Shown here piece after piece: positions 3,408-28,400 of a DNA stretch of 64,000 nt. The notes below the pieces were generated by a model. It was given only the letters and a program-made list of their open reading frames with translations, had not been told where the DNA came from and did not search any database. The stretch lies in assembly GCA_033182465.1 (NCBI GenBank), contig CP137326.1, positions 1,891,501 through 1,955,500 on the forward strand. The letters run 5' to 3'. The stretch comes from Sanghuangporus weigelae. Its lineage: Eukaryota; Basidiomycota; Agaricomycetes; Hymenochaetales; Hymenochaetaceae. Within the stretch, counting starts at the first letter, position 1. Each line of letters starts with the position of its first letter. A program made the translations under genes and the position numbers.

Positions 3408-3708
3408 TTGCAAAGGCTTCTGGACATTCAAAAGGTATCATTGGCTTCATGTCCGGAAGACTGCCTCCACCGTTTGCGTCAAATTCACTGCTACAGTAAT
3501 GTGGACTCGGATGCCTGAGAATGGCCAATGGAAGCAAAACAAATTGAACAACAAAGCACGTCATAATAACACATAGATAATCTTCCAGAAGAAAAGCAAG
3601 TAGAATAGCACGATTGCAATAACGACGATAAATTCAAGAAGATCCCGAACTAGAACAAAATAGGAGGAAATTGATTCCGTGGTCAGGTCTTTATGCCTTG
3701 CTATTCAG
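3408..3708. other. Flank between repeat and kinase relic; no gene
   Basis: A minus-strand open stretch at about 3410-3560 contains GGGSLPDMKPMIPFECPEAF. The sequence left of the repeat (below 1551) continues plausibly with RFKDDGTFVT before a stop. Repeat copy 1 may therefore sit in an old exon. No family is recognised and this may be chance. Confidence 0.25.
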
Positions 3709-5458
3709 CTAAGGCTCTTGTAACAGATCTGCTGCTGAAGGTCGATCTTCGTGATCCAGATGCATGCATTTCTTTATCAGTGCATTGGCACCCTCGAGAT
3801 CCTCTGCTTGATCCAAAATGCCAAGTTTCTTACACTTCTGTTGCGAGCTCGCTCGCTTCACTGGCATCTTCTTCAGAAGACCTGTTGTTGTTGTAAACAG
3901 AGCCATTCAGCTCTGTGCAAATAACAGGGTCGAAAGGAAGAAAATTCAGTGCTCACCTGTCTGCGAATTGAGGAATTGACTAGCTGTCAACGTACTTCGG
4001 CAAGTTTCTGCTGAGAATTGCTCCCCTGTATAAAGTAGCATCTGATGCAGCATGGACTCAATCAAAGGAAGATCGGAGGATAGTGAGTCAAATAGTTCAT
4101 GGCCGTAAATAAGTTCGAAAAGCTATATTTATTGCATTACAACTCAGTGCCTTGCTTTAGGGCGCCTATAACAAATAAGCGCACTAACCATGCATCCAAA
4201 AGTCCATATGTCGACTTTATGGTTCCAGGGGAGCTCGAGTAAGATCTCTGGGGGCCGACGGTTGCCCGCAATAATATTATCGGATACTTTCATGTCGAGA
4301 AACTGGGCTGGTCCTCTGTTTTAGCGTACAAGTCCATATGAGGCCTGAAGGTATTTTATGCACCATTTCCAAAGTCCCAAATAATGAATGAGCGAGACAA
4401 CTGAGAGTTGGGGGGTGGGAGTGGGAGCGGCTGGGACTTGGCTATGTGAACATACTTGTTTCCTAATGTTCGTTCAGAAGGATGCCTTTCCGATGGGTTG
4501 GCTTTGATGAAAGTCTCGATATCAAGAGTATGCGGGCCAGTTGCTAAGTCCATCATGATGTTTTCAAGTCGCAAGTCTGGTTGGACAATATCACCCGTCA
4601 ATCAAGAGAATACATGAGCACATCTTGGAAACGTACCTATATATACAATACCGAGACTATGTAAATGATGCAGTCCTCCCAATACGTCGAGAAGTATCTT
4701 CTTTAACAATGATATCAAAAACTGCCCTGCTGTAGTTCTGAGGGAAGCAACAGATGGCCCACAGAGATCTATCACCATGCAAAGATGACCCCAGTCTTCC
4801 TTGTCTTTGCTGGGTTGGACAAAATCATCAAGCAAATAAAGACAGTGTGTTCCTCGAGCATCTTTCTTATGATACGAAAGTTCCTCGAGGATATCTGCTT
4901 CAAAAGCGACCCCCATCCTCACCATATTTGTCAAGTATCCAGTCATCGCCTTGATCGCGACAAATTAATTGTTCCTGGGTATAGAATATCATATGCCTCA
5001 GTTTGGACCGAAAGAAACAAATAGAGAAACATACACAGTATCTTTAGCTAGCCATACACTTGATTCTGCTCCCCAGTCAAGTTTCTGAAGTATTTCATAG
5101 CGATTATCCGGACCTATATGATCTCCAAATTCAACTTGTAGATACCCAAATCCGTTTATCGCGCCTACACCAAGAGGCTCCTTGGTAAATTCGAGAGATA
5201 CATCCTCTGAGTCTGCTTCTTTTCTAGAGGTGGATCCCACGAGAGGACAATCCCCCCGTATTTACTCACGCATCTTGTATTCGGCAGGTTCAATTTGGAG
5301 GCGAAAGAGAGATCCAGTCGTAGAGGTGGAGGAGTAGATCTACTAGGAGTATAAACTGACATTGGACGCCGCGAAAAGGCATGAGGCAGATACGGTAACA
5401 TAGAGCACTTGCAAAAAAGGTTCAGGTCCAATAGACGATGCACTGAAAACTTGTGCAT
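3709..5458 (-). pseudogene. SRPK-like protein kinase, decayed copy (kinase 1)
   Basis: This is a six-exon kinase on the minus strand, homologous to the two intact kinases at 17591 and 21219. The N-lobe includes GDHIGPDNRYEILQKLDWG near 5110; the usual glycine loop LGWG has become LDWG. The VAIK lysine is kept near 4945. The catalytic loop reads YIDLRLEN after splicing, with the Asp kept, and DFG is present near 4366. The APE motif is PPE, and the C-terminal ALIKKC block lies near 3790. It looks non-functional: an in-frame TAA falls at the start of exon 2 (about 4968), and the reading frame shifts near 5225 unless an unusual 46 nt intron is used there. The last exon stops at LLQEP, lacking the WLNS tail of the paralogues. 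No small partner gene lies upstream. Confidence 0.8.
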
Positions 5459-5683
5459 GGTAGCTATATGCTGTTGAGATCAAAAGAAGATACGAAGGAC
5501 CGAAGGTAGAAAAAAAGTAAATTATACCGTGGGAACTAAAGTCCGAAAGTGTGACTCTTAGCATTCAAGTCAATGAGACATCAGCAAAATACATTCGACA
5601 GCACTGCATAATGAGTTTACATTAGTGAAGCAGCAGAAACTCAAATATGATAACAAAGAAAAGCGTGTACGAATAATTGTGTC

Positions 5684-6818
5684 CTATACACCACTATTGA
5701 GCCACGAATCTTGCAGAAGTTCCTTTGCTGAAGGGCGGTCCTTAGGATTCAAGCGAAGGCATTTCTTCATCAGAGCGGTCGCGCCATCGAGATCCGCCAC
5801 GCTTTTAAGAGCCCCGATCTTTTTGTTTATCTGATATAAGTCTACATCCATTCGAGGTGGATCATCAATCAACCACCCTTTGCAAGATTTTAGTTGATTG
5901 TTGCTCAGATAGTATAATGCGACTGACCTGTCTCAGGATCGAGTAGTTTCCTCGCAGCTGAGCTATTTCGAATCGTCTCTGCAGGTACCCTCTCGCCGGT
6001 AAGCGCAAGAATCTGGTACATCATGGCCACGTCAAGCGGAAGATCGAGCTCGAAAGTCTTGAAGAGCACTCTCGGTCTTCTTATCAAGAAACTGAGCTGG
6101 TCGAAGGAATAATGTAAAGGCAGATAGGAGATTAAATATTGCGCACCAGTTCCAAAACCAGACAGTATATGGGATCGAGACATGGCAGCCTCAAAAGGCG
6201 GTGGCGGGAATGGCTGAGATCTAGCTACCTGCACATATTTTCCTCCCCAAGTTTCTTCTGGCGGATATTTCTCAGGTGGATGAAACTTGAGAAATGCCTC
6301 GATATTGAGAGAATCTGGTCTGCTTCCTAGATCCATGAGGATATTGGATGGATGGATGCCTGTCGCCTTTGTTAAGTGACAATAGTAATAATGCACAAAA
6401 TCCCCAGACTCACCTGTGTGAACGATTCCGAGGCTATGTAAATGATGTATACCCTTCAGGGTATTTACGAGTAGCTCTTTACGAGTGGTAAAGTGTCTAT
6501 ATCTCCTGGTGCTCTCGCAGGAATAGAAGACAATCCCAGAGGATCAATGACAAGGCAAATATGCTCCTCATCTCGATCATCCTTCACCGGTTGAGTGAAC
6601 TCGTCAAGAAGCGACAAGCAATGCATTTCTCGGAATCCCTCTCCACAAGAAGAGATTTTGCAGAGAACATCTCGTTCGGACAAAAATCCTGCTTTTTCTC
6701 TTTGGGTCGTATACTGGCTCAATGCCTTGATGATGAAAATGCCTCCATCGTTCGATCTAGTCTGATGTGTTGGTAGAGATTTCATGTCTTCGAGAGCAGG
6801 AGCATATAGACGTGTCAC
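5684..6818 (-). pseudogene. SRPK-like pseudokinase (kinase 2) with core motifs lost
   Basis: A second minus-strand copy, upstream of kinase 1 in the same orientation. The N-terminus (TRLYAPALEDMKSLP) matches the intact paralogues, but the sequence then jumps from about residue 25 straight to IFIIKAL. The glycine loop and intron 1 are therefore missing. The frame shifts near 6490. After splicing the catalytic loop reads HTGIHPSN (Asp to Gly) and the DFG motif reads GFG. Most of exon 4, including the APE motif, is absent near 6070-6120, so exon 3-like sequence is followed almost at once by the exon 5 block (VLFKT). The C-terminal exon (GATALMKKCLRLNPKDRPSA, LLQDSWLNS) is well preserved. It cannot be an active kinase. 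It may be a plain pseudogene or, less likely given the frameshift, a scaffold. Confidence 0.8.
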
Positions 6819-7368
6819 TCATCAGCGAGGAAGAGGAGAAACAACAAGTAGCCTACGATATAGGTCAGTTTTGAGAGCTGAGTGCACAGCAAGTCTGTAC
6901 ATGGTAGCAGTTCTGCACAGTGCTGATGATAGATGCAGAGAGATATAAGGTGCGCAGCGTCCGTCACCGAGTTGGCCGTTGATCATACTTATTGATTGTC
7001 TAGCCTAGTTTGGGAGATTCTGTGGGTCCAGTGTCGTCCTCATCAGAACAGTATTGTACGCGAAGACCAGAACTAGCAGTAAATTGATCTATGCAGAGCA
7101 GAAGCAAGGACAGGATCACAACATCGATCTGCAGTCTGGTGTCTCTTAACTAATATTGCGCAATTCAATCGAGCATCTCGAGCGGGAAATCACTACTTAG
7201 CAGGCCCTGACCGAAATGAACGAGTGCTCGTTCTTCCGGTGAAGAAGTAAGATGTGTCTTTTCCGAATAAACAAGTCAGGTCTTTTGAGTAAAGATTACG
7301 TGCCATAGATTCAGCAGAGGCATTGTCAGACTGTCCGTACATATGAGAATTGGTCGCGGTAATAAGAA
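6819..7368. other. Intergenic, no feature recognised
   Basis: This lies between the start of kinase 2 and the CACTA-like element. No coding stretch or clear repeat was seen. No remnant of the small partner gene found beside the intact kinases could be recognised here. Confidence 0.4.
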
Positions 7369-8428: not shown

Positions 8429-9029
8429 TATTTGCAAGATGAGAACTGCCCGATTACATAATAATGTTGATAAGTCTGCCTGTCACGCTTTTCAAGTCAC
8501 CTTTATTGTATGCCTTATATTAATTCATTGGATAGCTCTTTCACCACACAAACTAGGCTGCATGTACTTACAGTAGTGGAGTACTAATATATCTGCTTTT
8601 GAGTCATGCTCAAAGCATGAATGAATAGCAAAATGCATCTGATTCATTGTTTCTCATTGAGTTTCACTGAAATTCAGCAGTAAATAATTTCTCTGTATTT
8701 AACGGGACATGGTAATTTGCTGAAATTTTGCAGCATGACTCATGTATATTCTGTCCACCTATGATAAAAATTTCAAGTTGCAAATTGGAGGTTTGAGTGA
8801 GTAAATGTAGGGTGTTCAAAGGAAGGGTACTGTTTAAAAGTAAATGCATTATCAAATTTCAAATTTCATTTGTCATCTAGTTATGGATTTAGTCCGTGTC
8901 TAAATAACTGTTTCCCGCTGTGGTTGGAAGCCAGGCCGAACGTGAGAAATCAAGTCCATATTCATTTTAGTTTCAAAATTCTTTCCTGCGCCGTCCATCC
9001 ATCCGAGAAGTCACTCAAAAAAAAAAAAA

Positions 9030-10639: not shown

Positions 10640-10928
10640 ACTTCTTGTCTCTGAGTATGTGTATTCTCGACTGGAAGAACATGACTTCTACAACATTTCC
10701 CCCAATATTCATTTGGGCATGGCAGTGCGACGCTGCTACTCTACGATACGAGCAAAAGTTTCTTGGCGAATAATCCTTTGTTATATATGTCGAAAGCAAA
10801 TCAGACAGCGACAATCATGATATTTACATACATTTGCGTATTGAGATCAACGAGTCAGTACAAAGCGGTGTGGTCTTCCAAACTCCAGTTCATTTCTGGG
10901 CCGGATAGTCCCAATTCCCGAATGTCAA
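10640..10928. other. Convergent 3' region between EBP2 and CDC37
   Basis: About 290 bp shared by the 3' ends of two convergent genes. No separate feature was recognised. Confidence 0.5.
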
Positions 10929-12674
10929 TCATGTAGCAACAGTCCTAACCTCCTCCACGTCCGCCTCATCTCCCGATTCCGGTACATCTTCTATCCCCTC
11001 CTCGTCATCAGTAGCTTTATTCCTGCCCGTCTCATCCCTAATCCCACCCTCCGCAAAGCTCAGGATACCCGACTGGTCCAACAGCTGCACCACCTTCTCC
11101 GCCTCCTCCACCGTCATACTCGCCAAAACCTTGTTCACTTCTTCCAATTTCTGGCTCTTCAGCGCCTCCTTGAGGTCGTCCCGGAATCCGTTGAAGACGT
11201 CCCACCGCATCTGCAGCACCCTCCTGACCTGCTCGATGTCCAGGTTCTCCGTCCCGGGGCCTTCGAGCTCGAGGTGCTCAGGGGGCGGTCCGTCCGGTAC
11301 GACGAACGAGATCTGCGTCCCGTCGCCCTCAGCAACGAGCTGGATCTGCTCCTCCCCGCTTCGGTCCATCTCCGCATTCGTCGCCTCCGCACGGCTCTTC
11401 ACGTGCTTATACGTGTTCTCCACGTCCGTCTGGAACACCCTCTCCACGCGCGGGTCGCCCGCGGTCATGCGCTTGAAGAACAGGCGCACGCCGTCCGTGC
11501 CGAGCTGCTCGCAGTACTGGATGAGCAGCGCCTGGTGCACGCATTGTTTGGCGTATGCGTGCCTCCCCTCGCGTTCCGCTCGGAAGCCGGCGACGAGCAG
11601 CGCGTCGGACGCACCTGGGACGTAGACGTCGCGGTGCTCCTGGATGAAGTGGAAGGATTCTTCGTACCCCCGCAGAGGGAGGTGAGAGAACGCTTCGAGC
11701 GAGGGCGTCATTTCGGGGACTTCCTCATCTTCGTCGTCTTCTTTCGTTGCAGCGGCGGCGCTAGAGGAGGAAGAGGGACCTGCAGGAGTGCTTTGCGAGG
11801 CGAGAGCGGCGACTTGGGCATGTTCGACGGCCTTTGGGTTTATCACCTCGATGTCTGTCTTCGTTTCTACTTTTTTCTTCCCGTGTTTGTGAGCACCTTT
11901 GACAGGCTCAGGCTCCGGTATAGGTGGGGCGTACTAGAGAATAACGTTCAGCATAGAATGCTTGACCAGGTTCGCAGAGCACCTACATGAGATTCAAACC
12001 CCTCATGTATATCCTCGCTCGTGATCTTCTTCAACTTCTCCGCTTCCTCCTTCTCAAGCTCCTTCTTGAGTCTCTCGGTCTCATCACCGAGCTTACTCAC
12101 ATGCCCCTTCAAGCTCGCCACAAGGCACTCTCTCAAGCGTTCTTCATTCTCTCCTCCGGCCGTCGTCAACCCCTTCTCCTTCGCCTCTTCAAACACCTTC
12201 AGTAATAAACTCAGAATCATCTCATCGTACGTGATTTTCTTCGGCGCGTTCGATGGCGGTGCGTCTGGAGACGGGTTGGTCTTTAGACGCTCGACGATGG
12301 AGGAGAAATGTGCCGGCCCGTCCGGCGCACCGTGCACTTCCTCCGTAATAGTGCGTAAACGCGGGAGGAGGATCTCATTGCATGCGATCTCGGCTTTGAG
12401 CTGCTCGATTTTGGCGTTCCGCGCTGCACGCTTCTCGCGGATGTCTCGCTGTTTCCAGCTATAAGCGCCCGTTGTTTTTTATATAGTTTTGGGCTGCAAG
12501 TATGGAGAGTGGACGTACGCGACTAGGGAGCGGTGGTCGACGTTCGGGTGACCTTCGATGTCTGAATCATCTGAGACCTATATAACGAGTATCTAGTGGT
12601 TAATCGGGTATGGACTGGACGATGTATGCGACACGTACCTCGAGTTTATCCCATTTTGAATAGTTCAACGGCAT
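10929..12674 (-). CDS. CDC37: Hsp90 co-chaperone CDC37
   Basis: Cdc37 delivers client protein kinases to Hsp90. Exons on the minus strand are 12639-12674, 12519-12577, 11987-12458 and 10929-11933, which join in frame to 523 residues. The start MPLNYSKWDKLE followed by VSDDSDIEGHPNVD matches the highly conserved N-terminus of the family, including the Ser near position 15 in an acidic context that CK2 phosphorylates in known homologues. A helical N-terminal domain follows (KQRDIREKRAARNAKIEQL). The middle Hsp90-binding domain includes GYEESFHFIQEHRDVYV and CVHQALLIQYCEQLG, and the C-terminal domain includes AEKVVQLLDQSGIL. The length is normal for a fungal Cdc37. Its position among kinase genes is notable but probably chance. 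Confidence 0.93.
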
Positions 12675-13397
12675 CCTAATTCAATTCCAGTATTCAATCA
12701 AATATCCAGAGAAATATTTTCCTTATTTTGAGAAATTAGATGAGGAATGGATGAAGCAGAGATGAGAGACGAGTAGATCCTACGCGTTGAGTTTAGTATA
12801 AAAACGAATCGCCACGGATCGGCGCTCGTCCTCGCCGATCATATAAAGGTAGCCTACGCAGAAGATTCCAGAAACAGTACAGCCTTATGCTTATTATGAT
12901 TAGCGCTCTATCTACAATAACACTACAATGCACTGTACTTAAACCACACTATAAATACCAAACCAAAAGCTATTCTACTGTATACAAGTGTTTATTATTC
13001 CCTTTGTTTCCAGTTCTTTGATTAGCACTAACTGCACAGACTCATCTTTATCATAAGGTCCTAGGAAACGTTGTCTGCATAGCTTCCGAACATCCCTTCT
13101 TGTCTAGATTCCATACATATGCTTACAATGTGTTGACAAGCGCTGACTCGTTCGGTTCAATTCCTGCAAGTAAATGTGTATTTGTACAAGCCCCATCTAG
13201 TGGACTCGGGGAAAAGATGTATGTGTAAGTAAAATACGCTTGCATGTGGGTAACAGGCATCATGATGATTGTATGTGTATGAAATTCAAGTAGCATGAGA
13301 ACTAAAGTTTCGTTGTAGTTACGGATGAAGTTCTATAATCTTTATTCGCACAACGATGCCGTAGAGAACCCCGAGCATAGCCCATTAGATTAGTATC
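12675..13397. promoter_or_regulatory. CDC37 upstream region; heme oxygenase 3' flank
   Basis: About 720 bp between the CDC37 start and the heme oxygenase stop, both genes on the minus strand. It must contain the CDC37 promoter and the 3' end of the heme oxygenase transcript. No coding stretch or defined element was recognised. Confidence 0.4.
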
Positions 13398-14604
13398 TCA
13401 CTGGGATCCCAGAATACTCGAGACGTGCTCTCCAACCCAGTTCCACACAGCCTCGAGCTTTCCATACCCACTAGCACCGGTGAACCCATTCGTGACCAAA
13501 AGGAAATGAGTCAGTGTTGCAGCGAGGACGATAGCGACGACCGAGGAGACGGAGAACGATTTCTCAGTCAACTTCTGAGGTCGAATGGACGGGTTGGGTT
13601 GTAGAGGTGAATATTTATCCAACGATGTGGAATGCGCAGTACTCTCTGGGGGTGGTGTTGGTGGGAGAGAAGGATTGCCCAACGGTGCTCTCGCTGGTTC
13701 TTGAGAAGCTGACTTCGAGGGAGGACGGAGGATACTGAACAGACCCATATTCAGCTCGAACGCATAAATGGCCTCTTCCGCAATAGCCTCTATTTGTTTG
13801 ATATTCTTAAGCAAGCGTGAGAAACCATCAGGAAAAGCTTACGTACGCTTTCTGCTCGCATCATCTCCTCCGCCTGCATTCATCCCAGCCCGGAACCAGT
13901 CCTTAATTCGGCGCATGTCTCCCGCGTTCGCAGCTCCGCCGCCGCCCAGCTTCCCGAACACGTAGAATTGTGTGCCTTTTCCCTCTTCGTCCTCGCTCGT
14001 GCCGTACGCCTTTGCGATGCTCCGCCGGATGACCTGCCCACCACTCAAATCCCCGAGGTATCGGACATACGCGTGTGCGAGGAGCGGTGACGGGTCTGCT
14101 GCTTCGTCCGAGAGGTACTTTATCCGTGACACGTATGCGGAGAACGGCTCGGGCGAGGAAGTGACGAGAGCTCGGTGCAGTGGATGGGATTCCCAGGCGT
14201 CCTCGGGAACGGAGAGCAGGTGCGCGATGTCGGACGCGATGCTCGGTGCACGCGCGAGAAGCGTGGGGTTATACGTCGGCGAAAGCGCTGGATGGAAGCT
14301 GTGTTTCTCCAATCCTGCTTCCAAGGCGCTATTCGCACGAAGAGACGCGTCATTACGCGATTATCAGCAAAGCATAGAAATCTCAGGACGAGGACGTGGC
14401 GCCAGTTAATATACACAGTACTCACTCGTAAACATGATATAGCATCATAAGAAAACGGATGTATTCCTCTTTATCGAGTTCGGCACGGGTAAGCCACCCA
14501 GCGCCTAGAGAGTGCTCGGCCTGCTCGTGCGCCGCGGTCGTCGCAACCTTGAGAAGCGTTGCGAGGGGCTGCGTGTAGTCTATGTTCCCGTTCGCCACCG
14601 TCAT
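13398..14604 (-). CDS. Heme oxygenase, C-terminally membrane-anchored
   Basis: Heme oxygenases cleave heme to biliverdin, CO and ferrous iron. Exons are 14426-14604, 13847-14328 and 13398-13789, giving 350 residues in frame. I chose the ATG at 14604 (MTVANGNIDYTQPLATLL); an upstream in-frame ATG at 14718 would add 38 residues. The proximal heme-ligand His is likely in TTAAHEQAEHSLG (about residue 25). The family signature helix is present as YLGDLSGGQVIRRSIAKAYG. A poorly conserved Pro/Ser linker leads to a hydrophobic C-terminal segment (VVAIVLAATLTHFLLV), consistent with a tail anchor in the ER as in animal HO-1 and yeast HMX1. The third exon was placed by frame agreement, with acceptor ATAG before AGGCTATTG. 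Role in iron recycling is inferred. Confidence 0.88.
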
Positions 14605-15006
14605 GTCTTTCAATGATATCCAGAAATCAGCAGCAATTAGAGTGTTTGAGAAGAAATGCGAAGTGATAAGAAGATGGTGGTGGCGAGTCGGCAAGGGAGT
14701 GAAATCCGAGAAGGGCACAGAGCTAAGGCGGCGACCGGTTGCGGAAAGCTTGTAAAGAAAAATGATCTCGCTTATCTGATTATCCTTTTTTGGACAGGAT
14801 CACGGGATGACGAGAGCTTACGTGTACAATCTCCTCTCCGAGTTGCCTGACTCCGATTCGTCCCTGCCTGCAATCGCCATTTCGACTCCGATCCAGTCAA
14901 TCAGACTCGTCCCTACTCACCCTCATCTGCACTCCGTTAGGCTAAGAGCTCTTCCTATCTGATCTGAACTTTTCATTCAGAACTATCCAGTCACTTCCAG
15001 CGCACC
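14605..15006. promoter_or_regulatory. Heme oxygenase upstream region
   Basis: The upstream side of heme oxygenase up to the first copy of the intergenic repeat. No coding stretch or specific operator was identified. Confidence 0.35.
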
Positions 15007-15486
15007 AGATGTTGTGATGTGGCCGTTCAATGACGCGATCGATTGCACAGAAGTAGTGCCGCAACTCTGGTCAAGCGCAGTTGGTCATCTACGGGACTTT
15101 TGCGACTGCGGCTTCTATGTAGTTCAAAGCGTCTAACTCCTAGGCACTTTGATGATCGCTTCCTTTCCACGACCATACGGTGGATCTTTATGTGCTTTCT
15201 TTCATTTTCTCATTAGCAGCGAGGGCTACAGTCTTACCTTTCTCTCAATTGGATTGCACGAGTCATAACCGCAATTCTGGTCGAGTACAGTTGCTCATTC
15301 TCTAGGAGTTCTGCTACTGTGGTCCGCGATTTCTTATACAAAGTGTCTGTTTCACAATGCTCGCAATATTCGTCCGGTCTGCTTTCCGTGCGGAATTAGC
15401 TGCTTCTCTCTCTCTCATATCCCTGTGAAATTTCTAGTTTGATCTATTCCGTTACGTGAAGGCAGACAAACTCCAGCCGGAGTGAT
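15007..15486 (+). repeat. Intergenic direct repeat, copy 1 (start of duplicated kinase unit)
   Basis: About 480 bp from AGATGTTGTGATGTGGCC to CTCCAGCCGGAGTGA, repeated in the same orientation at 19366-19815 with roughly 80-85% identity by eye. It precedes the small gene/kinase pair just as the second copy precedes the second pair, so it marks the left end of a segmental duplication. No coding potential was recognised. Internally two related blocks occur: ATTGCACAGAAGTAGTGCCG and, ~240 bp later, ATTGCACGAGTCATAACCGC, each followed by AATTCTGGTC- or AACTCTGGTC-like sequence. Confidence 0.8.
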
Positions 15487-16417
15487 GTTTCGGCGCGGCT
15501 GGTGTGCCGACTGAAGCAGGGACTGTGCTTGCGGAACCAAACATCGTTCTCTCTGTTTTCTTCGCGTCAGTATTTGACAATTTCTTTGCAACTCTCAAAG
15601 TTAATATTCTAAACTGATCATATCAATTGACATGATGCCGGGACGCAATCGTTCTTCAGGGAGCCTGAGCGCCAGGGAAGGTGATGCTACCGCAAACTCT
15701 GATTCTCTTTCTTATCAGAGCGTAGACGACTTCTTTCTCATCAAAATACTCCTGTAACTGCGATCTCTGCACTGAGAATCTCAGTAACTACGATTGCCTA
15801 CTTTGCTTATAGTCAAGATCTAATGCTATTACGTTAGTCGACCTTCTCCCAAAATATTCCCTGGGCTTCTCTGGAAAGAGTGACATATGGACATTCCTTT
15901 ATAATGTGTTAAGTGTTGAGCTTTTTGATGACCGGAAGCTCCTCGAGATTTGCTAATGATCTTGTGTGACTCTTGGCCGCGACGTACCAGATCCTACGGT
16001 CACCGGAAGGTGGGGATGACCCAGATCAGCGATATGAAGGACCTATCTGTTCATCCGATGTTAATTACGGTGCTAGTGGGCTTTCTCTCTTTTCAGTAGT
16101 GCTTTTATTTATGCATTGTCTTAGGCCGACGTTTCTGTAGTAGAGATCAATATTTTGATATGACTTTCCTCCAGTTCTCTGCGTGTGAATTCAACAGAAA
16201 CATTTGTAGGCTGAAGCGAAACTTTCTTTGAGTAAGATATGGATTGACATCAGTGCTATTCACTATTCACAAGTACAAGACCTTCAAACTCCGGGTAGAG
16301 ACGACCTGCATCTCTTGCATCAGCCACCGACATCATTCCTTCTTTTCCTCTGTCACGACAGGAGACCTGTTACAAGACATTCTCAACTTGAGGCATGTGG
16401 AAAGAGTAAGCTATCAC
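15487..16417. other. Intergenic, no gene recognised
   Basis: About 930 bp between the direct repeat and the 3' end of small gene A. Only short, unconvincing open stretches are present. The corresponding interval in the second unit is about half as long and carries a kinase exon relic. Confidence 0.35.
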
Positions 16418-16922
16418 TTACATATCTTTTATCTCCTTCAAATCTCTGTCATTAGGTTCTGCCAGTCCTTTTAATTTGAGCTCTCCAGGCTTCGGCCAAA
16501 GCGCTTCATCCATATGAATATGGAGCATATTCCAATCTCTATCCGGTCCTGAAAAGATCATTTTCTTCGTGCTATCATTGTAGACTTTGGCTGATATGTG
16601 ATTTCGCCGGTCATTGTCATTGTAATGCTCTCCTCCACTTGACAGTATGGAAAATAAATTAGCAATACAACAGAGCATCATATAGATACACGTGAACTTA
16701 CGATGCTACCACCAGATAGGCACCGAGGTCATCAAGGCCAGTGTCTTTGCAGTATTTCTTGATCTTGTTGCCGAACATCCTGGCCTTCTCCTCTTGCCTG
16801 CTGTATACATTACCAGCAAAAGCAACAGTGTTCACAGGTCGAAAACTGCCTACTCTTGGGTCTATGACCCAAGATCCGATGGCAGGAAATTCGATACAAA
16901 TTCTGCGAAGATTTCGGAGCAT
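16418..16922 (-). CDS. Small unknown protein A, divergently paired with a kinase
   Basis: Two exons, 16702-16922 and 16418-16637, join in frame to 146 residues. I recognise no domain. It is homologous to the gene at 20258-20761 with the same exon number, intron position and size. Shared features are a basic N-terminus (MLRNLRRICIEF here), a Tyr/Arg-containing middle, the sequence GLDDLGAYLVV just before the intron (GLDRLGVYKAIV in the paralogue), and a C-terminal part with a W..(L/I)H(I/V) strand-like segment (DWNMLHIHMDEALWP here, WDRIHVATDESNWYP there). The N-terminus could be a mitochondrial presequence. It starts 668 bp from a SRPK-like kinase transcribed in the opposite direction. Conservation of structure between the duplicates argues that it is a real gene. 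Confidence 0.65.
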
Positions 16923-17590
16923 GACTGATTGCGTTTCACAAGATAGTCAGAAGAGTGCGACGGTGTTGATGAGTATCTGTTGGATTTCATCTCCAGGACT
17001 TGGGAGATCGTCTCTTTAAATACATTTCGGTACGATTGTGGCATAATGGAGGAATATACTCACCAGAAGGTCTCTATCTCGACCATGGCTCTGTGGTTGC
17101 TCGGCCAGCTTTCTAGACTCGATTCTCGAAGTACAGCCGTGATAAGTCGGAAATGCACCGTCCTCAGGGACAAATTTTTAGACCATTTCGGTTCAAATAC
17201 AAGTTTACAGAGATTAGAGATGTGGCAGAATGACCGACCAGTGAGCATGAGCCCCAGTCTTTCAGAAGAACAGGTCTAACAAGACTCGAATCTCAGAAAT
17301 ATAGCATGCTCGAACAAGATTCCAACTATCATGGTGCAAAGTTGTTGTCCAAAACGAGAGTCGTCGGATGTACCATAAAGTTATAAGAGCCTAATTTTCC
17401 TCGAAATGCCAAGGCCACGAGATGAGACCTGACGATATGCATCGTGGAGCATAAGTTAGGCTGTGGCATTGGCATTGGAATTTCGCCGCATGAAGTCGCG
17501 GTCACGGGCTCAGTTTCTATTTTGAGTTGAGTAGACCGGGATTGCGCTTCTTCTTGGCCTTTTACCATCACAAGCTTTCTCGGTTATCCC
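16923..17590. promoter_or_regulatory. Shared divergent intergenic region, pair 1
   Basis: 668 bp between small gene A (minus) and kinase 3 (plus). Parts align to the equivalent region of pair 2: ACAGAGATTAGAGATGTGGC here versus AACTTAGAGATATGGC near 21020. The divergent promoter was therefore copied with the genes. No specific binding site can be named. Confidence 0.5.
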
Positions 17591-19263
17591 ATGCACAGGA
17601 ATGTACTCCGTTTCGTGGCACGACGCTGCAGTCTCAGAGGCCCTCGATGGCCTTATCTTGATCGCCGCACAATCACTCGGCTATGCGCACCCAGTCTCAG
17701 AGACATGCTTGACTCTCTACCGTCAGTGGCAACCCAAACTCAAAAAGGGGACCTTATCCTTGTATATGACAAAAGTCTAGATGTTCAGAAATCCAGTTTC
17801 GTCCATCTAGACTTTGCCGAAGAACCATGTGGTTTCGAGGCAAGCCAAGGACTTGGATTCCTCCAGGTTGAGTTTGGTGATCGCATAGGACCGGATGGTA
17901 GATATGAAATACTCCGAAAACTTGGCTGGGGGATGCAGTCGAGTATATGGCTGGCTAAAGATACTCCGTGCGTCTCATCTGCTCATCTTTTCAAATGATT
18001 TCTAATTTGATTACGCATAGGAATGATCGTTTCGTTGCTATCAAGGCTTTAACTGGGTTCACGACCAGTCAGGTGAAGAAGGGACTCGTCCGTGAACTAG
18101 ATATGCTCCGGCTTCTTTCCTCACGCAAAAATGGATGGAGAGACACGCACTGTCTTTTCCTGCTTGATGACTTCATCCAGCCCGGAAGATATGAATCGGA
18201 TGGCGAACACCTATGCTTTGTAACTGACCCTTTTGGCCCGTCTCTCGCTGCTTTCATGGATGCAGGGTATCGCTTTACAAAACCGCTCATAAAGAAGATT
18301 CTGCTGGACACATTGGCCGGCCTCGATACCCTGCATAGCTTTGGCATCGTTCACACAGGTAAGATCAGGCTTGTGACGTTATGTTCGAGATACGATAGCT
18401 GATGGCGTTTAGACCTCACCTCCTCAAATATCCTGGTGGGCACAGAAAATGATGGGCATAGCTTCGATATCGATTTGTTCATCAAAGCACATCCTTCTGA
18501 GAGACATCCACCAGAACTTACTTGGGGTGGACGGCACGTTCGGGTGGCTAAATCCCAACCATTTCTATCAACATGGAATGCTCCTTCCTCTGTAATTGCT
18601 GACTTCGGCGTTGGTTTGTTTGAATCTCGTAGTATTCCCTTTTTGTTTCTGTCTGATTTTGAGGATAATAGCTCAGTTCTTGACCAACAAGGTTTCTGAT
18701 GATATCTCTCCGCCCGATCAATGTGCCCCTGAGACAATTCTAGGTCTTCCATGGGACGAGAAAGTCGATATATGGGCCTTTGGCTGCATTGTATGAACCT
18801 TCATTTCACGTTTCTCTCTTTTGTGGATCACTGAAGTCGAAGCTAGGCTTTCGGGCTTATAAATAGACAGAGACTCTTCAAAACTACTGTTGGCGATCTG
18901 CCCAAGGAGCTGGCCGTCTTGTATCAGATTTTAGTTTTCACGGAAGAACGATTGCCGCCCGAAACAATCCAAAGCAGTTCAACCGCGATGAAATATCTCG
19001 ACCCAGAAACAGGTTAGTCTTGTCTCGCTCAAAGGCCTTTTGGAAATCTGACAATTCTGTTTGTACAAGGCTGGGTGACCGCGCCTCTGATACCCGTCGA
19101 TATAGACTTGTATCGCATATTCAAGGAAATCGGTGCTCTGAAAAAGCCAGAAGATCTTGACGGTGCGACTGCCTTGATGAAAAAATGCCTTCGAATAAAT
19201 CCCAGGGATCGAGCTTCAGCAAAGGACTTACTCCAAGATCCTTGGCTCAACAGTGAGACGTAG
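17591..19263 (+). CDS. SRPK-like serine/threonine protein kinase (kinase 3)
   Basis: Six exons, 17591-17967, 18021-18358, 18413-18613, 18672-18790, 18847-19012 and 19070-19263, give 464 residues in frame. Motifs in order: glycine loop in GRYEILRKLGWGMQSSIW (about residues 98-115), VAIK lysine, catalytic loop HTDLTSSN, DFG in IADFGVAQFL, APE in CAPETILGLPWDEKVDIW, and a C-terminal block ending DLLQDPWLNSET. HTD in place of HRD and the KLGWG loop are hallmarks of SR-protein kinases. In canonical SRPKs the loop reads HTDIKPEN; here the Lys is replaced by Thr, which may lower activity. An insert of about 50 residues separates catalytic loop and DFG (SERHPPELTWGGRHVRVAKS). The N-terminus is Arg-rich without acidic residues (MHRNVLRFVARRCSLRGPRW), resembling a mitochondrial presequence. 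Substrate unknown. Confidence 0.85.
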
Positions 19264-19365
19264 TAAACGAGTCTTCTTCTGCATTCTTTCTGTAGGTATC
19301 GTTTTTAAACCCCAGCTCAATTTGCCAGTCGTCGTGCTATGTCATCCGCTTTCGTTATTCACATA

Positions 19366-19815
19366 AGATGTTGTGATGTGGCCGGTCAGTGACGCGATTG
19401 ATTACACATCTCTGATCAAGCGCAGTTGGTCATCCTGGGATTTCTGCAGCTGCGGCTTCTATGTAGTTCGAAACGTCTAACTCCTAGGCATCATGATGCG
19501 TGTTTCCACCATACAACGGATTTTTATGTGTTTTCTTTCATTTTCTCGTTAGCAGCGAGGGCTGCAGTCCAATCGTTACTTCGATTGATTGCACAACACA
19601 TTACCGCAATTCTGGCTGAGCACAATTGCTAATCCTCTGGGACTTCTGCTACTGCAGTCTGCGTTTCTCTGCAAAGTATCTGTTTCACGATGCTCGTAAC
19701 GCTCGTCCGGTCCGCTTTCCTTGCGCAATTACCTGCTTCTTTCTCCCATATCCTGTGAAATTTTTAGTCTGATTTATTCTGTAACACGAAAGCAGATAAA
19801 CTCCAGCCGGAGTGA
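19366..19815 (+). repeat. Intergenic direct repeat, copy 2
   Basis: Second copy of the repeat at 15007-15486, same orientation, starting AGATGTTGTGATGTGGCC and ending CTCCAGCCGGAGTGAGG. It begins about 100 bp downstream of the kinase 3 stop codon and marks the junction between the two duplicated units. Confidence 0.8.
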
Positions 19816-19864
19816 GGTCGGTCTTATCACGTTTTCTGAATGAATATAGCTAAAATCCTATGCA

Positions 19865-20025
19865 GGGTGGTTAATCAAGAATCTACCGGGATGGATGAAG
19901 AGTTGCATAAGAATGTTAGAAGCGCGGTTGCTCTGATGAAGAAATGCCTTGGTTCGGATTCTAAGGACCGGGCTTCAGCATAGGAATTATTAGAAGATTC
20001 GTAGCTCAGTAGTGGAGGATAGAAT
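19865..20025 (+). pseudogene. Last-exon relic of a SRPK-like kinase
   Basis: The sequence after a TGCAG acceptor-like site resembles the last exon of kinases 3 and 4, in more than one frame. Recognisable parts are AVALMKKCLGSDSKDRASA (paralogue: TALMKKCLRINPRDRASA) followed by ELLEDS and LSS. It contains in-frame stops and at least one frameshift, and no upstream kinase exons are present. It shows that a further kinase copy once lay here, left of small gene B. Confidence 0.7.
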
Positions 20026-20257
20026 GCTCTCTAGCACACACGCTGTTTCTTAGCGAGGAATTGCCATGCAACACTGTTGAATGCATATGTATTTCACTAA
20101 TTTGTGTCAAGAATAAAATAAAATAAAAACAATGTTACTCGAGTTTGAGTAACATCAAAATGCTGTGATTCAGTCGAGTGAAATGTATAGCACATCACCC
20201 GAACTATTCTCGGCTTCCCTGTTCGAAATTGTCAATATACAAACGGATTATGATTTA

Positions 20258-20761
20258 TCAGAGAACATACATTGACTTTAGCTCCTCTTTTATTTGTTCT
20301 CCTGGATCGACTTTCTTCCAAAGAGAGAAATGATCCTTTGGATACCAATTTGACTCATCTGTTGCGACGTGGATCCGATCCCATGATTGCTTGCCATCCG
20401 TGAACCATATCCAATTCCCATCTTTATCATAGAACTCAACTGTAAGACGGTTGAAAGTCTCTCCATTTCTGTCAGATGGGTTTTCGTGAGCGGGTCCTCT
20501 GTTCATAGAGGATTTTAGACTTGAAAAATAACAGAATATGAACTACATTTGCCTCACTATAGCCTTGTAAACACCAAGTCTATCCAGTCCGACATAGTCA
20601 CAGAATCTGAAGACCTTTCGAGTTAAACCTGCCGCATAGTCTTGCTGATTCTTGTATAGTCCTTTTGCATATGCAAAGCTATGTAGGAGACATACTCTTC
20701 CTTGCGAAATTGCAAAGAAGGGGATAACCGGTCTGAGTGAGATACGAGAAAGCATATTCAA
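20258..20761 (-). CDS. Small unknown protein B, divergently paired with a kinase
   Basis: Two exons, 20547-20761 and 20258-20498, join in frame to 151 residues. It is the paralogue of small protein A (16418-16922), with the intron at the same place, just after the GLDRLGVYKAIV segment. The N-terminus MNMLSRISLRPVIPFFAISQ is basic and hydrophobic, consistent with a mitochondrial presequence or weak signal peptide. The C-terminal half contains FNRLTVEFYDKDGNWIWF and WDRIHVATDESNWYP, suggesting a small beta-rich domain with conserved Trp. No known family is recognised. It starts 457 bp from kinase 4 on the opposite strand. An alternative start is the Met at 20755. Confidence 0.65.
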
Positions 20762-21218
20762 ACTTGGAAAAAGCTGCTTCAGACAGAGATGCGTAGCGAG
20801 TATGTTATGGAACTACTGTGCATGAACGCCCTGTTTTTATACCCCTAGACGACTTTGTGGTTTGAACTGAAAGATAGCATGTTTTGATAGTCAACAGCCA
20901 GCGACTGAGCAGATATTGGGCCATGGTCGCCTCTCGATAGATATCCTAGTGGTTTGCACTTCAGTATCTCGGTCCGGAGAAGCTCTAACCAATTATTCTC
21001 ACAGTTGCGGATGCAAGCTATTAAACTTAGAGATATGGCAAAAGAAAAGGATCGACGCGAAAGGCCACATAGCTGTGGCAAGTTATTGAGGCTGAGCATG
21101 CCCGTAGAGCCCGATGCCCCATAGCACTTCCATTTAAGGTAAAGGCTCTGAGGAGTAAAAAGTAAAACTCGCGATCGAGCGTGCTTGGCTCCTGCCACAA
21201 CCCCTCATCCTCCCAGGC
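20762..21218. promoter_or_regulatory. Shared divergent intergenic region, pair 2
   Basis: 457 bp between small gene B (minus) and kinase 4 (plus), partly homologous to the divergent region of pair 1. No specific site can be named. Confidence 0.5.
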
Positions 21219-22916
21219 ATGCATGCGTCAGTGCTCCGTCTTGCGGCAAAGATGCCTAATGTGCAGAAATCTATTTCTTGCATTCCCCGTCGATGCATTA
21301 CCAGGATGTGTGCGCCTGCCTTTAGAGATATGCAGTCGCTGCCCGTTCTACGAACTCAAGATGAAAATGGCAACCTCATTGTTCTATTCGACAGGTCTCC
21401 GGAAGTCAAAAAAGAAGAGATAAAATGTCTGGACTTCAAAGAAGAGCCATGCGGCTTTAGGGAAAAGCAGGGTTTTGGTTTTCTGCAGGTTCAGTTCGGA
21501 GATCGAATAGGGCCGGGTGGTCGGTATGAAGTGCTGAGAAAACTTGGCTGGGGCATGCAATCGAGTATATGGCTGGCCAAAGATACCGTGTATATCTTAC
21601 TTTCTTTAGATGTGACCGACCGAGATCCAGACTAACGCAGCTTTATGTAGGAAGGATCGATTTGTCGCAATCAAGGCACTAAACGGATACACCACAACGT
21701 TTGTCAAGAATGGGAAGATGCACGAATTAGAGATCTTACGGTGTCTCTCTTCTCAGGGAAAAGGAATGCGCGACACACACTGCCTTGTCTTACTTGATGA
21801 CTTTATAGAGCCCGGGAAGGGCAAAGGTGATGGTGAACACCTATGTACAGTCACTGATGCCTTGGGATCAAGTGTTTCTGGGTTTAGAAGGGCCATTGGG
21901 GGTCTTACGAAGCCGTTGACAAAAAAAATCCTCCGTGATACATTAAAAGGTCTGGAAAGTCTGCATAGTTTAGAAATCGTTCACACAGGTACGACTTGTG
22001 ATATTCCCTCCTTTCACTGGAAGCCTCAAAACTGAATCCCTTACCCATAGATCTGCATCCTTCGAATATCCTGGCGGATCTAGGATACGGACCTCATTCT
22101 TTCGATATAGGGGCATACTTAAATAGTAGCTCGCCTGAAAGACACCCCCCGGAACTTTCTTGGGGTGGTGAATACGTCCAAGTCGCAGTCTCTCAGCCTT
22201 TCCCAACCCCTCCTCCTGAGTCGTGGGAGTCTCTCTCCTTCATACTTGCGGATTTTGGTGCCTGTACGCGAGGTTTTATCCCCCCAATATATGAAGATAC
22301 TGACAAAGTCATAGCCCAGTTTCTGAACAAAAAGACACGAGATCACATTTCACCGATTGACCAACGGGCCCCAGAGACATTCCTCAGACTTCCTTGGGAC
22401 GAGAAAGTCGATATATGGTCTTTCGGGTGTTTAGTGAGTGTTTTCCATCTTGCAGCGAGATCGTGAAGCAAGAAGACGCTGAATTGTTTGCAGGTTTTCA
22501 GGTTTATAAACGATCAAAATCTCTTCAAAACTGACCTCCCTGGTCTTCCGCCGGATTTGGCCATGATGTACCAGATCCTTCTGCACACGGATGATCGGCT
22601 GCCGGCCGATACGATTCGTAGCAGCCCTCTGGCAATGAAATACCTCGATCCGGAGACAGGTCAGCATCTGCAGCTCTCTTCTTTGGTAGTCGTCGTAACT
22701 AACTTCACTGTGTCTATACAAGGATGGTTGACTGTCGACTTGCCCAGAGATCGCATAGACTTGTACGAGATAAATAAGGGGATCGGAGCTTTGAATAAGC
22801 CGTCAGATCTTGACGGGGGGACAGCTTTGATGAGGAAATGCCTTCGGTTAGATCCTAAGGACCGTGCATCGGCGAAGGAACTTCTTCAAGATCCTTGGCT
22901 TAACAGCGACACATAA
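21219..22916 (+). CDS. SRPK-like serine/threonine protein kinase (kinase 4)
   Basis: Six exons, 21219-21589, 21651-21988, 22051-22263, 22315-22433, 22494-22659 and 22723-22916, give 466 residues in frame. Exon phases are identical to kinase 3 throughout. Motifs: GRYEVLRKLGWGMQSSIW, VAIK lysine in FVAIKALNGY, catalytic loop HTDLHPSN (Asp kept, usual Lys replaced by His), DFG in LADFGASQFL, APE in RAPETFLRLPWDEKVDIW, C-terminal ALMRKCLRLDPKDRASA and LLQDPWLNSDT. The fourth intron copy (22264-22314) has no stop when read through, so an unspliced form with an extra 17 residues after DFG is possible. The Arg/Ser N-terminus (MHASVLRLAAKMPNVQKSIS) again looks like a targeting sequence. All catalytic Asp and Lys landmarks of the N-lobe and C-lobe are present, so activity is plausible. 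Confidence 0.85.
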
Positions 22917-23925: not shown

Positions 23926-24446
23926 ATGTACAGGCTCACAACGTATCGCTTATTGAACGCGTGCCTCCTTCGCAGACAATCCACATGTTCATTTCTTCGT
24001 CTTACACGCCCAATGTCTCTCCGCACTCCTAGTAGTAACTCCAACACGCAGGCTTTTCAATTGGTCCCCTCGTCCGGCATGCAATATATACCAAGTTCAG
24101 AAGGCGTGAACAAGGACGGACAAATCGTATTTTCGTATGATCCACCACGAGGAGTACTCCGATGGCTCGGCAAGTCCTTGATCCAGATACAGGTGAGCAT
24201 TTCCGAACATTATGAACCAAATCGCTCATGTATGGCCAATGTTTTGAAAAAGGCGGCCTAATAATAAATCCATCGTCGCAGCATGCGGACTTATACCAGA
24301 GATGCAAGGATAGTGGCAGTTTGTATTCAGCAGTGGACATGGAAGGCGCAGTGACGCTGATAAAGAAATGTCTTCATTTGAGTTCCGGAGACCGCGCTTC
24401 GGTGAGAGATTTATTGCAAGATCCTTGGCTCAACAGCGACACATAG
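23926..24446 (+). pseudogene. SRPK-like kinase copy with its catalytic core deleted
   Basis: The N-terminal part (MYRLTTYRLLNACLLRR, later GVNKDGQIVFSYDPPRG) resembles the start of kinases 1 and 3. It then jumps directly to the end of exon 5 (gctcggcaagtccttgatcc, equivalent to the KYLDPETG region) and, after an intron, to the last exon (AVTLIKKCLHLSSGDRASV, LLQDPWLNSDT). Glycine loop, catalytic loop, DFG and APE are all missing, and the two parts are in different frames. It is a pseudogene produced by one large internal deletion plus frame loss. The 3' flank matches that of kinase 4. Confidence 0.75.
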
Positions 24447-24690: not shown

Positions 24691-25037
24691 TTGAATTTTG
24701 TGTCTGCTCACTTGATTGTAGACTGCCATAAAGAGCAAGACAAAAATATCTTGTAATGTTTCGATTTGATTCTTTTGTCTTTCACTTTTGTCCCTGCAAG
24801 TGGCTGTGACGCCCATCATGAGTAGCATTCGACTTGGCAGCCGAAAGATCACCGAAAAAAGGTTAGCATAAATTTATTAATGTTATGTCCTTATCTATCA
24901 AACGACCTAGGAATTGACTGGAATTGACCGACTGGGCTGGCAAGGATTTCGAAGAAGATATCTTTGGCATCTATCAACCACGTTCCGATCGGGGGCTTTT
25001 GTTCGTGGTCAAGCGACCAGCATCATGATGGAGTGAT
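24691..25037. other. Intergenic between kinase array and LTR elements
   Basis: About 350 bp. No gene or repeat was recognised. Confidence 0.35.
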
Positions 25038-25177
25038 GTTGGAATCCAAATCGACGAAGTAGTCTTGATCTGGGAATATTCTTGGCATATGACCTAATCA
25101 TTTCGTGATGTTGGAATCCAAATCGACGAAGTAGTCTTGATCTGGGAATATTCTTGGCATATGACCTAATCATTTCA
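25038..25177 (+). repeat. 70 bp tandem duplication
   Basis: The unit GATGTTGGAATCCAAATCGA... is present twice (25038-25107 and 25108-25177) with a single visible difference near the end of each unit. It overlaps the start of an LTR-like remnant. Confidence 0.9.
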
Positions 25178-25467: not shown

Positions 25468-28400
25468 GTTAGGACTCGAACATTTTCCTTTTCTTTTATT
25501 GTATCATCATTCATTTTAGTATTTTTCTTTTTACATTACTCATCCGTTTTTACTAATCCCGTTTGCTCCGTCATGGCTTATTCATCTTTACTCATTCACC
25601 ATGACTAAATCTGTTCCTTCCGACTAAGACGCTCACTAATCGCTCCACTCCTTCATCATGTGACCCCCTAATAGAGTAGACCTTTTCCACATCCAAAGTA
25701 TATATAAGTAGCTAGATTGACTCCTTCGTTTCCTTGTCTTTCTATTCTACTTACCTTCACTACGACATAGGTATCTACTCTTGTACTCTAGTATTACTAA
25801 ATAATCTACTTACCTTCACTACGACATAGCTTGCGTCTAGCTCGGCAACTCGCATTTAGCCTGTTGTTTGTTGTTGTGTTGGCCGCCTCGAGATCGATGC
25901 CTGTTAGTCTCGCCGCCTAACACCAGCGCTGTACCGAAGCTCGAACCTTCGGGGGAAAATTGGGCCATCTTTTCATATCGTTTTGAAGACGCTATTCGTG
26001 TCAAACACGTCTGGGGCCATTTCGATGGCACTTCTATTCGTCCTGGGCCTGCAGCAGCGACTGCACCTTCAGGAACACAATTAGGGCCTCAGCAATGGCC
26101 ACCTATGGGGACTGGAAGCGCACTTGGCACAATGCAGCCCCCGGGCACTTCATCCTCGACCCCAGTTGTGCCTCAAGCTCATCGAGCAATGAGATCGCAA
26201 ACCCAAACAGCAACAGCAGCAGCAACAGCCGCTCCAGCTACTCAGACGCAACCCTAAGCGGCTGGAACTGTACCCCAAGCGGTGTCGGTCGGCATGGTGT
26301 CGTATCTGAAGGTGCTACAGATGTCCGTCCTACTAAGGGTGCTGAATGTATGAAGGAACCTCCAAAAATGGGATGCCGACGCTATCAGACTCTCAAAGAC
26401 CTACTACCCGGCAGGTGCCAGGAACCGTCGGAGACGTAATGGATGGGTCTAAGGATGCCGCTGGATAAAGGGAATAGAATAACAGGGCCGCCGCTCAAAA
26501 GGGAGGGATCACAAGAGGCTGCCGACGTGGTATAAACTCGGCCACAGGAAGGTATGAAGTGTATAAGATGAATATAAAGGATAAAATGGAGTGAGTGGCT
26601 GGAGAAGGCGCCGCTGGGTCGTCTGATAGGATGCCTGGGTCGTCGGATGGCCGCCGACGTCGAATAGAGGGGTGCCGGACTGAGGGGGAGGCCGCAGGAA
26701 TCCGCCGCAGTAGCGTAAATGCGATAGATGAAAGGAAAAGACCGTATAAGATCAATATATGGGATAAACTGGAGTGAAAGGCTGGAAAGGATGCCGAAGG
26801 GGAGTCTGATGAGAAGCCTGGGTCGCCGAAGGGTCGCCGACGTCGAATAGAGGGGCGCCGGATCACTGAACGTCAGAGCGGCAGAGGCGTACCGGAGGCG
26901 GCGAAGGCAAGTAGAATGTGGAGTCAAACAAGAGGAGATGTCAAGGATAGTATATAGTCAAGGGGGAGGCTCAGTACATGAGGGGAGACTCAGAGTGAGG
27001 GATATCTCGAACTCTGGCGCTCGGTCTGGTACATGCTCTTGGAATCCTTGCTAGGCTTGGAATCCTTGCTAGGCTTTTTAATCCTGTCGTCTACAAGCTA
27101 GTATAAGCTCTATATATACTCTACTGCTGTCGCCGACACATCCTACTGTCTGACAACATCTCCTGAGTCATCTGGGTCGCCAAGGGCCGCTGCCGGAGCG
27201 CCCAGGTGAAATCTGAGAGCGGCAACATGAGGGGGGCATCCAATCACATGAAATATTGAGTATCTGCAATAACACGGGCGCCGGCAGAGTTGGGCTTGGC
27301 AGCGCGAGTCGGTGGCTTGGCACGCCGATGTACCACATGCCTACCTTCCATACATGGTCTAATGGGGGCCGCCGCATCAGGGGGAAGTCGGGAAACATCG
27401 GAACCGATGATCGGAGGCTGATATCGCGTATATGAGACAAAGGGCGCATCAGCCGATGTCCCTGAGGTGTCCGATGCATCGGCGGCACTCAATACAGAGT
27501 GTGGGCGATCCATAGTGACTAATATGAGTGGCCGGAGCGGCAGTGCTGCGGGGGACTGCCAGACTGGTGGCAGATATGTCGTAATGAGGCATGTAAGCAC
27601 ATATGACAATATATAGCTCCCTAGACAATGGGGGACTGCTTGGTAAGCTGTAGGAGGCGTCGGCGAGGGTACCTGAGGATGTCTGAGTGTCCGCCGCATT
27701 GATCGGCGCCAAGGGGGGCCGACTCGGAGGCATCCAGAGTCGCCGCACGGCTGTACGTATGGTAAATCATAAGATCGGCGGCACGTAGTCACTGAGGGAT
27801 GTGTCCTATAGTGCCTGGTGCTGGGTAGGAGCTGTCGGCGGACCTGTCTAAGTGTCGGGGAGCCATCGGCGGATCGATTTGGGTCATAGGAGGGCGCCGC
27901 AGTACAGTACGTGTGCTGGAATCAATGGATACGTGCTCAAATGATGTCCCGAGTGCAATAGGAGTGTGCCCTCACACTCTCAGGTGTCGGCAGTGCTGGG
28001 ATATGGTATCTGCAGTAAGAGGGAGCCATAGTATGAGTGTACTGGCACAGGAGGAGCCAGTGCGCTACAGTGGCTGGAACTGTACCCCCAGCCCAGATAC
28101 CCTTGCCACCATCGGCTCCATCGACTCCTGTGCCTCCTACTGCAGAAGAAAAGAAGGCTCAGCAAGATTGGGATAATAATGAAGCTTTATCTCAGTACTT
28201 ACTTTCTCAGAGGATTCCCAATTCGACCTTGATGTGCGTTCGTCGATTCCCTACTGTTGCGCAATGATGAACCGCAATTGTCATTGAGTATACAGACAAG
28301 TCCATGTATGCTCAAATGTCCCTAAAGGCCGAATTCCTCGAATCAAAGTGCCCTAAAGGATCAAATGTCAAAAATTTCCTGTCAGATCTTCGTTCGAAAC

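What the first reader, a model, noticed from the sequence alone, without database searches (positions are those of the whole stretch)
15007..22916. Duplicated two-gene module: unknown small protein plus divergent SRPK-like kinase
Two units in tandem share the same layout: ~450 bp repeat, small two-exon gene on the minus strand, divergent intergenic region with partial homology, six-exon kinase on the plus strand. Both genes of each pair kept their exon phases and reading frames, while every kinase copy in the window without a small partner is broken. This suggests that the kinase is kept only together with the small protein, for example as regulator, substrate or antidote. The small family matches nothing I know. 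The functional link is an inference from co-duplication and co-preservation.
Basis: partly seen in the sequence, partly recalled or inferred. Interest (0 to 1): 0.8.

Follow-up and report, generated by a model that had tools for sequence, protein, structure and literature searches.

The report
Kinase and orphan protein gene pair
In a fungal genome, two very old and strongly diverged copies of a head-to-head gene pair, an SRPK-like kinase and a small protein with no recognised relatives, have both stayed intact, which hints at a working partnership but does not prove one.

Summary
The anatomy is largely real. Two units (15007-19263, 19366-22916) each hold a small minus-strand gene (S1, S2) head to head with a six-exon, 469-residue SRPK-like kinase (K1, K2). 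Corrections: the small genes have three exons, not two; the divergent intergenic regions show no homology above shuffles; the ~450-bp repeat (K2P 0.177) is far less diverged than the genes (kinase dS 1.8-3.9; S not alignable as DNA), so it is younger or homogenised and does not date the pairs. S1 and S2 share 28% of aligned residues but keep both introns in the same columns and phase: real, constrained, fast-evolving genes. They are the only S genes detected in the genome, both beside a K. Close kinases without S (KA, KB and their copies on contig C2) are broken, but these are two lineages; KA shows borderline constraint after its duplication, and a more distant SRPK-like kinase reads open without S. 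A functional S-K link is plausible, not shown. The kinases belong to the known fungal SRPK expansion; S has no Pfam or PDB match. Other fungi could not be searched, so the finding's main proposed test remains open.

The parts
15007..15488 (+). Repeat copy 1, non-coding, 482 bp
   Evidence: 79% identical to 19366-19818; two copies in genome; no excess RNA structure, z -0.80 (+) and -0.26 (-)
16333..16922 (-). S1, small orphan gene, three exons 16922-16702, 16637-16422, 16366-16333, 156 aa
   Evidence: gene model; homology to S2; genome search
16923..17590 (.). Divergent intergenic region S1/K1, 668 bp
   Evidence: no homology to its counterpart above shuffles
17591..19263 (+). K1, SRPK-like kinase, six exons 17591-17967, 18021-18358, 18413-18628, 18672-18790, 18847-19012, 19070-19263, 469 aa
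   Evidence: gene model; Pfam PF00069 E 4.6e-27
19366..19818 (+). Repeat copy 2, non-coding, 453 bp
19860..20013 (+). Kinase 3' remnant between repeat 2 and S2
   Evidence: tblastn hits at 19909-20013 (K1) and 19921-20013 (K2); 78% identical over 92 bp to a C2 kinase 3' end
20170..20755 (-). S2, small orphan gene, three exons 20755-20547, 20498-20271, 20218-20170, 161 aa
   Evidence: gene model; genome search
20756..21218 (.). Divergent intergenic region S2/K2, 463 bp
21219..22916 (+). K2, SRPK-like kinase, six exons 21219-21589, 21651-21988, 22051-22272, 22315-22433, 22494-22659, 22723-22916, 469 aa (the 42-bp third intron keeps the frame and could be retained, 483 aa)
   Evidence: gene model; SRPK1 best in PDB, E 1.3e-27
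3691..5458 (-). KA, broken kinase without an S gene (ends approximate)
5683..6902 (-). KB, broken kinase without an S gene (ends approximate)

Best explanation
S and K form an old head-to-head gene pair kept as two highly diverged copies. K is a member of the expanded fungal SRPK-like kinases and keeps most catalytic residues. S is a fast-evolving small protein. The most likely way it works (inferred): S is made together with K, goes to the same compartment (all four proteins start with a basic, acid-poor leader of the mitochondrial type) and binds its own K as regulator, adaptor or substrate, so that each pair evolved its own matched partners. Shown: gene structures, homology, protein-level constraint on both genes, proximity in 2 of 2 cases. 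Inferred: co-expression, targeting, binding, regulation.
For: Same head-to-head layout twice, 668 and 463 bp apart. Kinases: 61% identity over 465 codons, third positions 41.5% identical, dN 0.31, dS 1.8-3.9. S: 28% identity over 147 codons, two introns at identical columns and phase, protein similarity beyond 2000 shuffles (exon 2) while its DNA is not above shuffles. Both S genes found in the genome lie beside a K. First 30 residues: K/R 5, 3, 9, 6 and D/E 2, 0, 1, 0 for S1, S2, K1, K2. K matches SRPK1/SRPK2/Sky1 in the 13 best rows of the PDB listing.
Against: Only two pairs, in one array, so proximity could simply be inherited. KA may have stayed constrained without S (borderline); a C13 kinase reads open without S. 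No expression or binding data. No homologue of S could be sought in other fungi. N-terminal leaders of this kind also occur on S-less kinases of the family (C13), so the kinase's leader is not specific to the pair. Structure models of S were unusable (mean pLDDT 35 and 58).
Confidence: 0.4

Rival explanations
1. Hitch-hiking: S is an independent, fast-evolving orphan gene that happened to lie beside an SRPK-like kinase when the segment was duplicated. Both genes are kept for separate reasons, and the loss of other kinases is ordinary birth and death in a repeat-rich array.
For: One ancestral neighbourhood is enough to give both cases. The array is full of kinase fragments and dispersed repeats, and a whole segment was copied between contigs. 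Effective sample for co-preservation is two against two lineages. Borderline constraint in KA without S; open C13 kinase without S.
Against: Head-to-head linkage outlasted saturation of synonymous sites and loss of all DNA similarity in the intergenic region, in a region where other copies were broken or cut up; both S copies are constrained.
Confidence: 0.4
2. Self/non-self recognition or killer module: S1/K1 and S2/K2 are old alternative haplotypes of one locus (toxin with antidote, or recognition partners), later placed in tandem by unequal exchange. This would explain why a flanking repeat is only 18% diverged while the genes are saturated.
For: Repeat K2P 0.177 against kinase dS 1.8-3.9; the homology starts exactly at the left end of the repeat in both units and no homology is seen to its left. 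The review PMC12881547 (passages seen) says that fungal incompatibility systems can be idiomorphs at one locus or tightly linked genes, and that cell-death pathways often come as two- or three-gene clusters.
Against: Homogenisation of the repeat or a separate later duplication gives the same contrast; homology stops sharply at 15488/19818 instead of fading. No known toxin, HET, NLR or gasdermin domain was found in S or K. No population data.
Confidence: 0.1
3. S genes are not real protein-coding genes (chance open frames).
For: No Pfam or PDB match, no expression data, only two members.
Against: Protein homology at E 5.4e-10 with no DNA similarity above shuffles, and two introns at identical columns and phase.
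Confidence: 0.04

Closest known systems
Fungal SRPK / SRPK-like (SRPKL) kinase expansion (CMGC group; Sky1, Dsk1, SRPK1)
   Same: K1/K2 match SRPK1 best in PDB (E 1.3e-27 for K2); HTD in the catalytic loop and an insert between catalytic loop and DFG as in the SRPK1 alignment. Papers report such expansions in Aspergillus nidulans and Neurospora (PMC3591445, passages) and in Fusarium oxysporum (PMC6001611, passages), with little known about their function.
   Different: The usual lysine after HTD-x is replaced (HTDLT in K1, HTDLH in K2); a basic N-terminal leader is present; a head-to-head partner gene S is present.
Two-gene fungal incompatibility clusters (het-S/nwd2, HELLP/PNT1; het-Q1/het-Q2 as idiomorphs)
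   Same: Compact linked pair, strongly diverged copies, as described in PMC12881547 (passages)
   Different: No NLR, HeLo, gasdermin, protease or amyloid-type domain was matched in S or K by Pfam; no genetic evidence of incompatibility
Spore killer / toxin-antidote elements (recalled, not tested against any sequence)
   Same: A kept pair in a repeat-rich, duplicating region would be expected
   Different: Nothing here shows toxicity or drive; these are only an analogy

Membership tests
SRPK-like kinases (CMGC) | Sequence similarity to SRPK1/SRPK2/Sky1 above other kinases | tested here: met
   K2: 13 best rows of the PDB listing are SRPK1, SRPK2 or Sky1 (E 1.3e-27 to 1.7e-22); the next is a LAMMER-like kinase at 3.9e-19
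SRPK-like kinases (CMGC) | Protein kinase domain | tested here: met
   PF00069 E 4.6e-27 (K1) and 9.1e-26 (K2), above cut-off
SRPK-like kinases (CMGC) | Catalytic residues: VAIK Lys, HTD Asp, loop Asn, DFG Asp, APE Glu | tested here: met
   all readable in both proteins; but the Lys two residues after the HTD Asp is Thr or His; residue roles recalled
SRPK-like kinases (CMGC) | Phosphorylation of RS-domain substrates | not testable with these tools
   biochemistry needed
Any known family for S | Match to a curated profile or solved structure | tested here: not met
   Pfam: only one sub-cut-off match for S1 (E 0.2), none for S2 and none for its exon 2; PDB profile search best E 1.3; bacterial/archaeal and viral contig scans found no relative
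Toxin-antidote or recognition module | Removal or mismatch of one partner harms the cell | not testable with these tools
   genetics needed
Toxin-antidote or recognition module | Old alternative haplotypes in the population | not testable with these tools
   one genome only; the repeat/gene divergence contrast is compatible but has other readings

The most novel reading that the evidence does not exclude
S and K are matched partners of a self/non-self or killer-type system in which an SRPK-like kinase is the active part and S its cognate control. Two ancient alternative haplotypes ended up in tandem, and kinase copies that lost S had to be inactivated.
Probability: 0.08. Interest if true: 0.85.

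Novelty: new variant of a known kind. Interest (0 to 1): 0.42.

Why it matters
The function of the expanded SRPK-like kinases of filamentous fungi is stated to be poorly understood (PMC3591445 and PMC6001611, passages). A dedicated small partner gene would give one branch of them a testable handle: a bait for binding, localisation and substrate work. If the pairing is only hitch-hiking, the case is an ordinary tandem kinase array next to an orphan gene.

Tried and rejected
Two-exon model of S: rejected, because both genes have a GT donor at the same place near the end of exon 2 and an in-frame third exon. Five-exon model of K2: possible, since its third intron is 42 bp and in frame, but splicing makes it match K1, whose 43-bp intron must be removed. 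One recent duplication of the whole unit: not supported. Repeat as structured RNA: no (z -0.80 and -0.26; the two-sequence consensus fold has 112 pairs, 6 with changes on both sides, and carries no control). Repeat as Rfam RNA: no match in the window. Further S copies: none in the genome at E up to 10 beyond S1 and S2. A weak candidate on C13 (L050:4973-5211, +, about 0.6 kb upstream of a kinase on the same strand) scores 58 with S2 exon 2 (1 of 2000 shuffles reach it) but 27 with S1 exon 2 (564 of 2000); it was the best outside hit among 4954 segments, E 2.1, so it is not counted; a genome search with it found only itself. Structure prediction: mean pLDDT 35.3 and 58.0, so no fold search was run. 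Kinase tree: the first version was biased towards K2 by its filter and is discarded; the second (120 columns) is unresolved around K1, K2, KA, KB. Papers on a basidiomycete killer kinase, SRPK in Agaricomycetes, or a divergently transcribed kinase/small-protein pair: searches gave none, 36, 45, 72 and 74 gave kinome and other papers; none of the titles listed names such a module.
Full report
Setting. The window is C9:1891501-1955500 of a genome of 33,870,148 bases in 13 contigs. It is fungal by its content (a FunK1-type kinase match PF17667, short introns); I take it for a basidiomycete, which is inference, and the species was not identified (one search found no paper). No relatives of this genome are held, so everything below rests on one genome.

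Gene models. S1 (minus) has exons 16922-16702, 16637-16422, 16366-16333 and codes for 156 residues; S2 (minus) has exons 20755-20547, 20498-20271, 20218-20170 and codes for 161 residues. Both introns are phase 2 and fall in the same alignment columns. K1 (17591-19263) and K2 (21219-22916) each have six exons and 469 residues.

What K is. K2 matches SRPK1, SRPK2 and Sky1 in the 13 best rows of the PDB listing, best E 1.3e-27, out of 718 distinct matches at E up to 0.001 of which 60 were shown; both kinases pass the Pfam Pkinase cut-off. VAIK, HTD, the loop Asn, DFG and APE are present; the Lys of the usual HxDxK loop is Thr (K1) or His (K2) (motif roles recalled). K is probably an active but atypical kinase; activity was not tested.

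What S is. No Pfam family, no PDB sequence below E 1.3, no relative in bacterial/archaeal or viral contigs. In the genome only S1 and S2 are found at E up to 10. S1 and S2 share 28% of 147 aligned residues, tblastn E 5.4e-10; exon-2 proteins score 82 against a maximum of 56 in 2000 shuffles. As DNA the two genes are not similar above shuffles (275 of 300 reach the score). Protein similarity without DNA similarity, with conserved introns, marks real coding genes under constraint. They evolve faster than the kinases: dN 0.85 against 0.31 (S synonymous sites saturated).

Age contrast. K1/K2 third positions are only 41.5% identical; dS is 1.8 (ML) or 3.9 (NG86) (two other estimators failed, a sign of saturation). 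Intergenic regions, pooled introns and the stretch between repeat and S show no similarity above shuffles (124, 154 and 235 of 300 reach the score), while the 100 bp after K1 and K2 are homologous (0 of 300). The repeat at the left of each unit differs at 70 of 453 aligned columns, K2P 0.177, much like the 81-87% identity of the long matching blocks between C9 and C2. So repeat and genes do not carry the same age. Either the repeat was homogenised or duplicated later, or two already diverged cassettes were put in tandem. The data do not decide.

Other kinases. A K2 search gave 43 matches. Close relatives: KA and KB in the window, and their copies on C2 within a segment matching window 3542-14815 in blocks. 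Each of these four carries at least one in-frame stop in the aligned pieces. In KB the second base of the catalytic Asp codon has changed in both copies, if the splice sites are as in K1/K2 (my reading). A 302-bp piece of K2 exon 1, 89% identical, lies at C2:1923482-1923776 between copies of a dispersed repeat. More distant SRPK-like kinases cluster on C13; one of them (L051 6608-8291) reads open across its exons as far as inspected, with no S nearby at significance.

Is the kinase kept only with S? Open with S 2 of 2, open without S 0 of 4, and the four are two lineages; hand-computed one-sided Fisher values are 1/15 and 1/6. Against the claim, KA copies differ by 32, 30 and 49 bases at codon positions 1, 2, 3 over 315 codons (dN 0.089, dS 0.267), a borderline sign (p about 0.05 by hand) that KA stayed under constraint after duplication without S; KB differs by 43, 36 and 50 over 263 codons, not distinguishable from neutral. 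The tree is unresolved. So co-preservation is suggestive at best.

Targeting. In the first 30 residues S1, S2, K1, K2 have 5, 3, 9, 6 Lys/Arg and 2, 0, 1, 0 Asp/Glu, while the rest of each protein is balanced or acidic. This resembles mitochondrial leaders; no predictor was run. Similar leaders stand on the S-less C13 kinases.

Verdict. A real, old, twice-present head-to-head pair of an SRPK-like kinase and an orphan protein. Partnership (0.4) and hitch-hiking (0.4) are about equally likely on this evidence; a recognition or killer module is a bold minority reading. SRPK expansion in filamentous fungi is known and its function is called little understood (PMC3591445, PMC6001611, passages seen); two-gene recognition clusters in fungi are described in PMC12881547 (passages seen). 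In eight paper searches that ran no listed title names this pair; most subscription papers are not in that library.

Noticed in passing
window 3542-14815 and C2:1941913-1954678: Interchromosomal segmental copy, blocks 81-87% identical, carrying KA, KB, a CDC37-like gene (10929-11846) and a heme oxygenase gene (13.8-14.6 kb); it stops short of repeat 1, and the S/K units are absent from the matched C2 stretch.
   Followed up: partly
window 23926-24446: Two-exon open frame of 143 codons made of a kinase N-terminal exon fused to kinase 3' exons, without a catalytic core; its 3' flank is about 71% identical to that of K2.
   Followed up: partly
C2:1923482-1923776 (L045:5482-5776): A 302-bp piece of K2 exon 1, 89% identical, lying between copies of a dispersed repeat that also occurs at window 29928-31173: possible capture by a mobile element.
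   Followed up: partly
window 1548-3409 and 26280-28069: About 1.8-kb dispersed repeat in opposite orientations on both sides of the kinase array; 54 matches in the genome, a lower bound because only 40 of 286 candidates were scored. No Pfam match in its two longest frames.
   Followed up: partly
L050:4973-5211 (C13:1358973-1359211): Possible distant S-like exon, starting after a phase-2 acceptor, about 0.6 kb upstream of an SRPK-like kinase on the same strand; not significant after allowing for the number of segments searched.
   Followed up: partly
window 33411-35582: Long frame with a FunK1 (Pkinase_fungal) match, E 1.1e-13.
   Followed up: no
window 25033-25176: A 72-bp unit repeated twice in tandem, 100% identical.
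   Followed up: no
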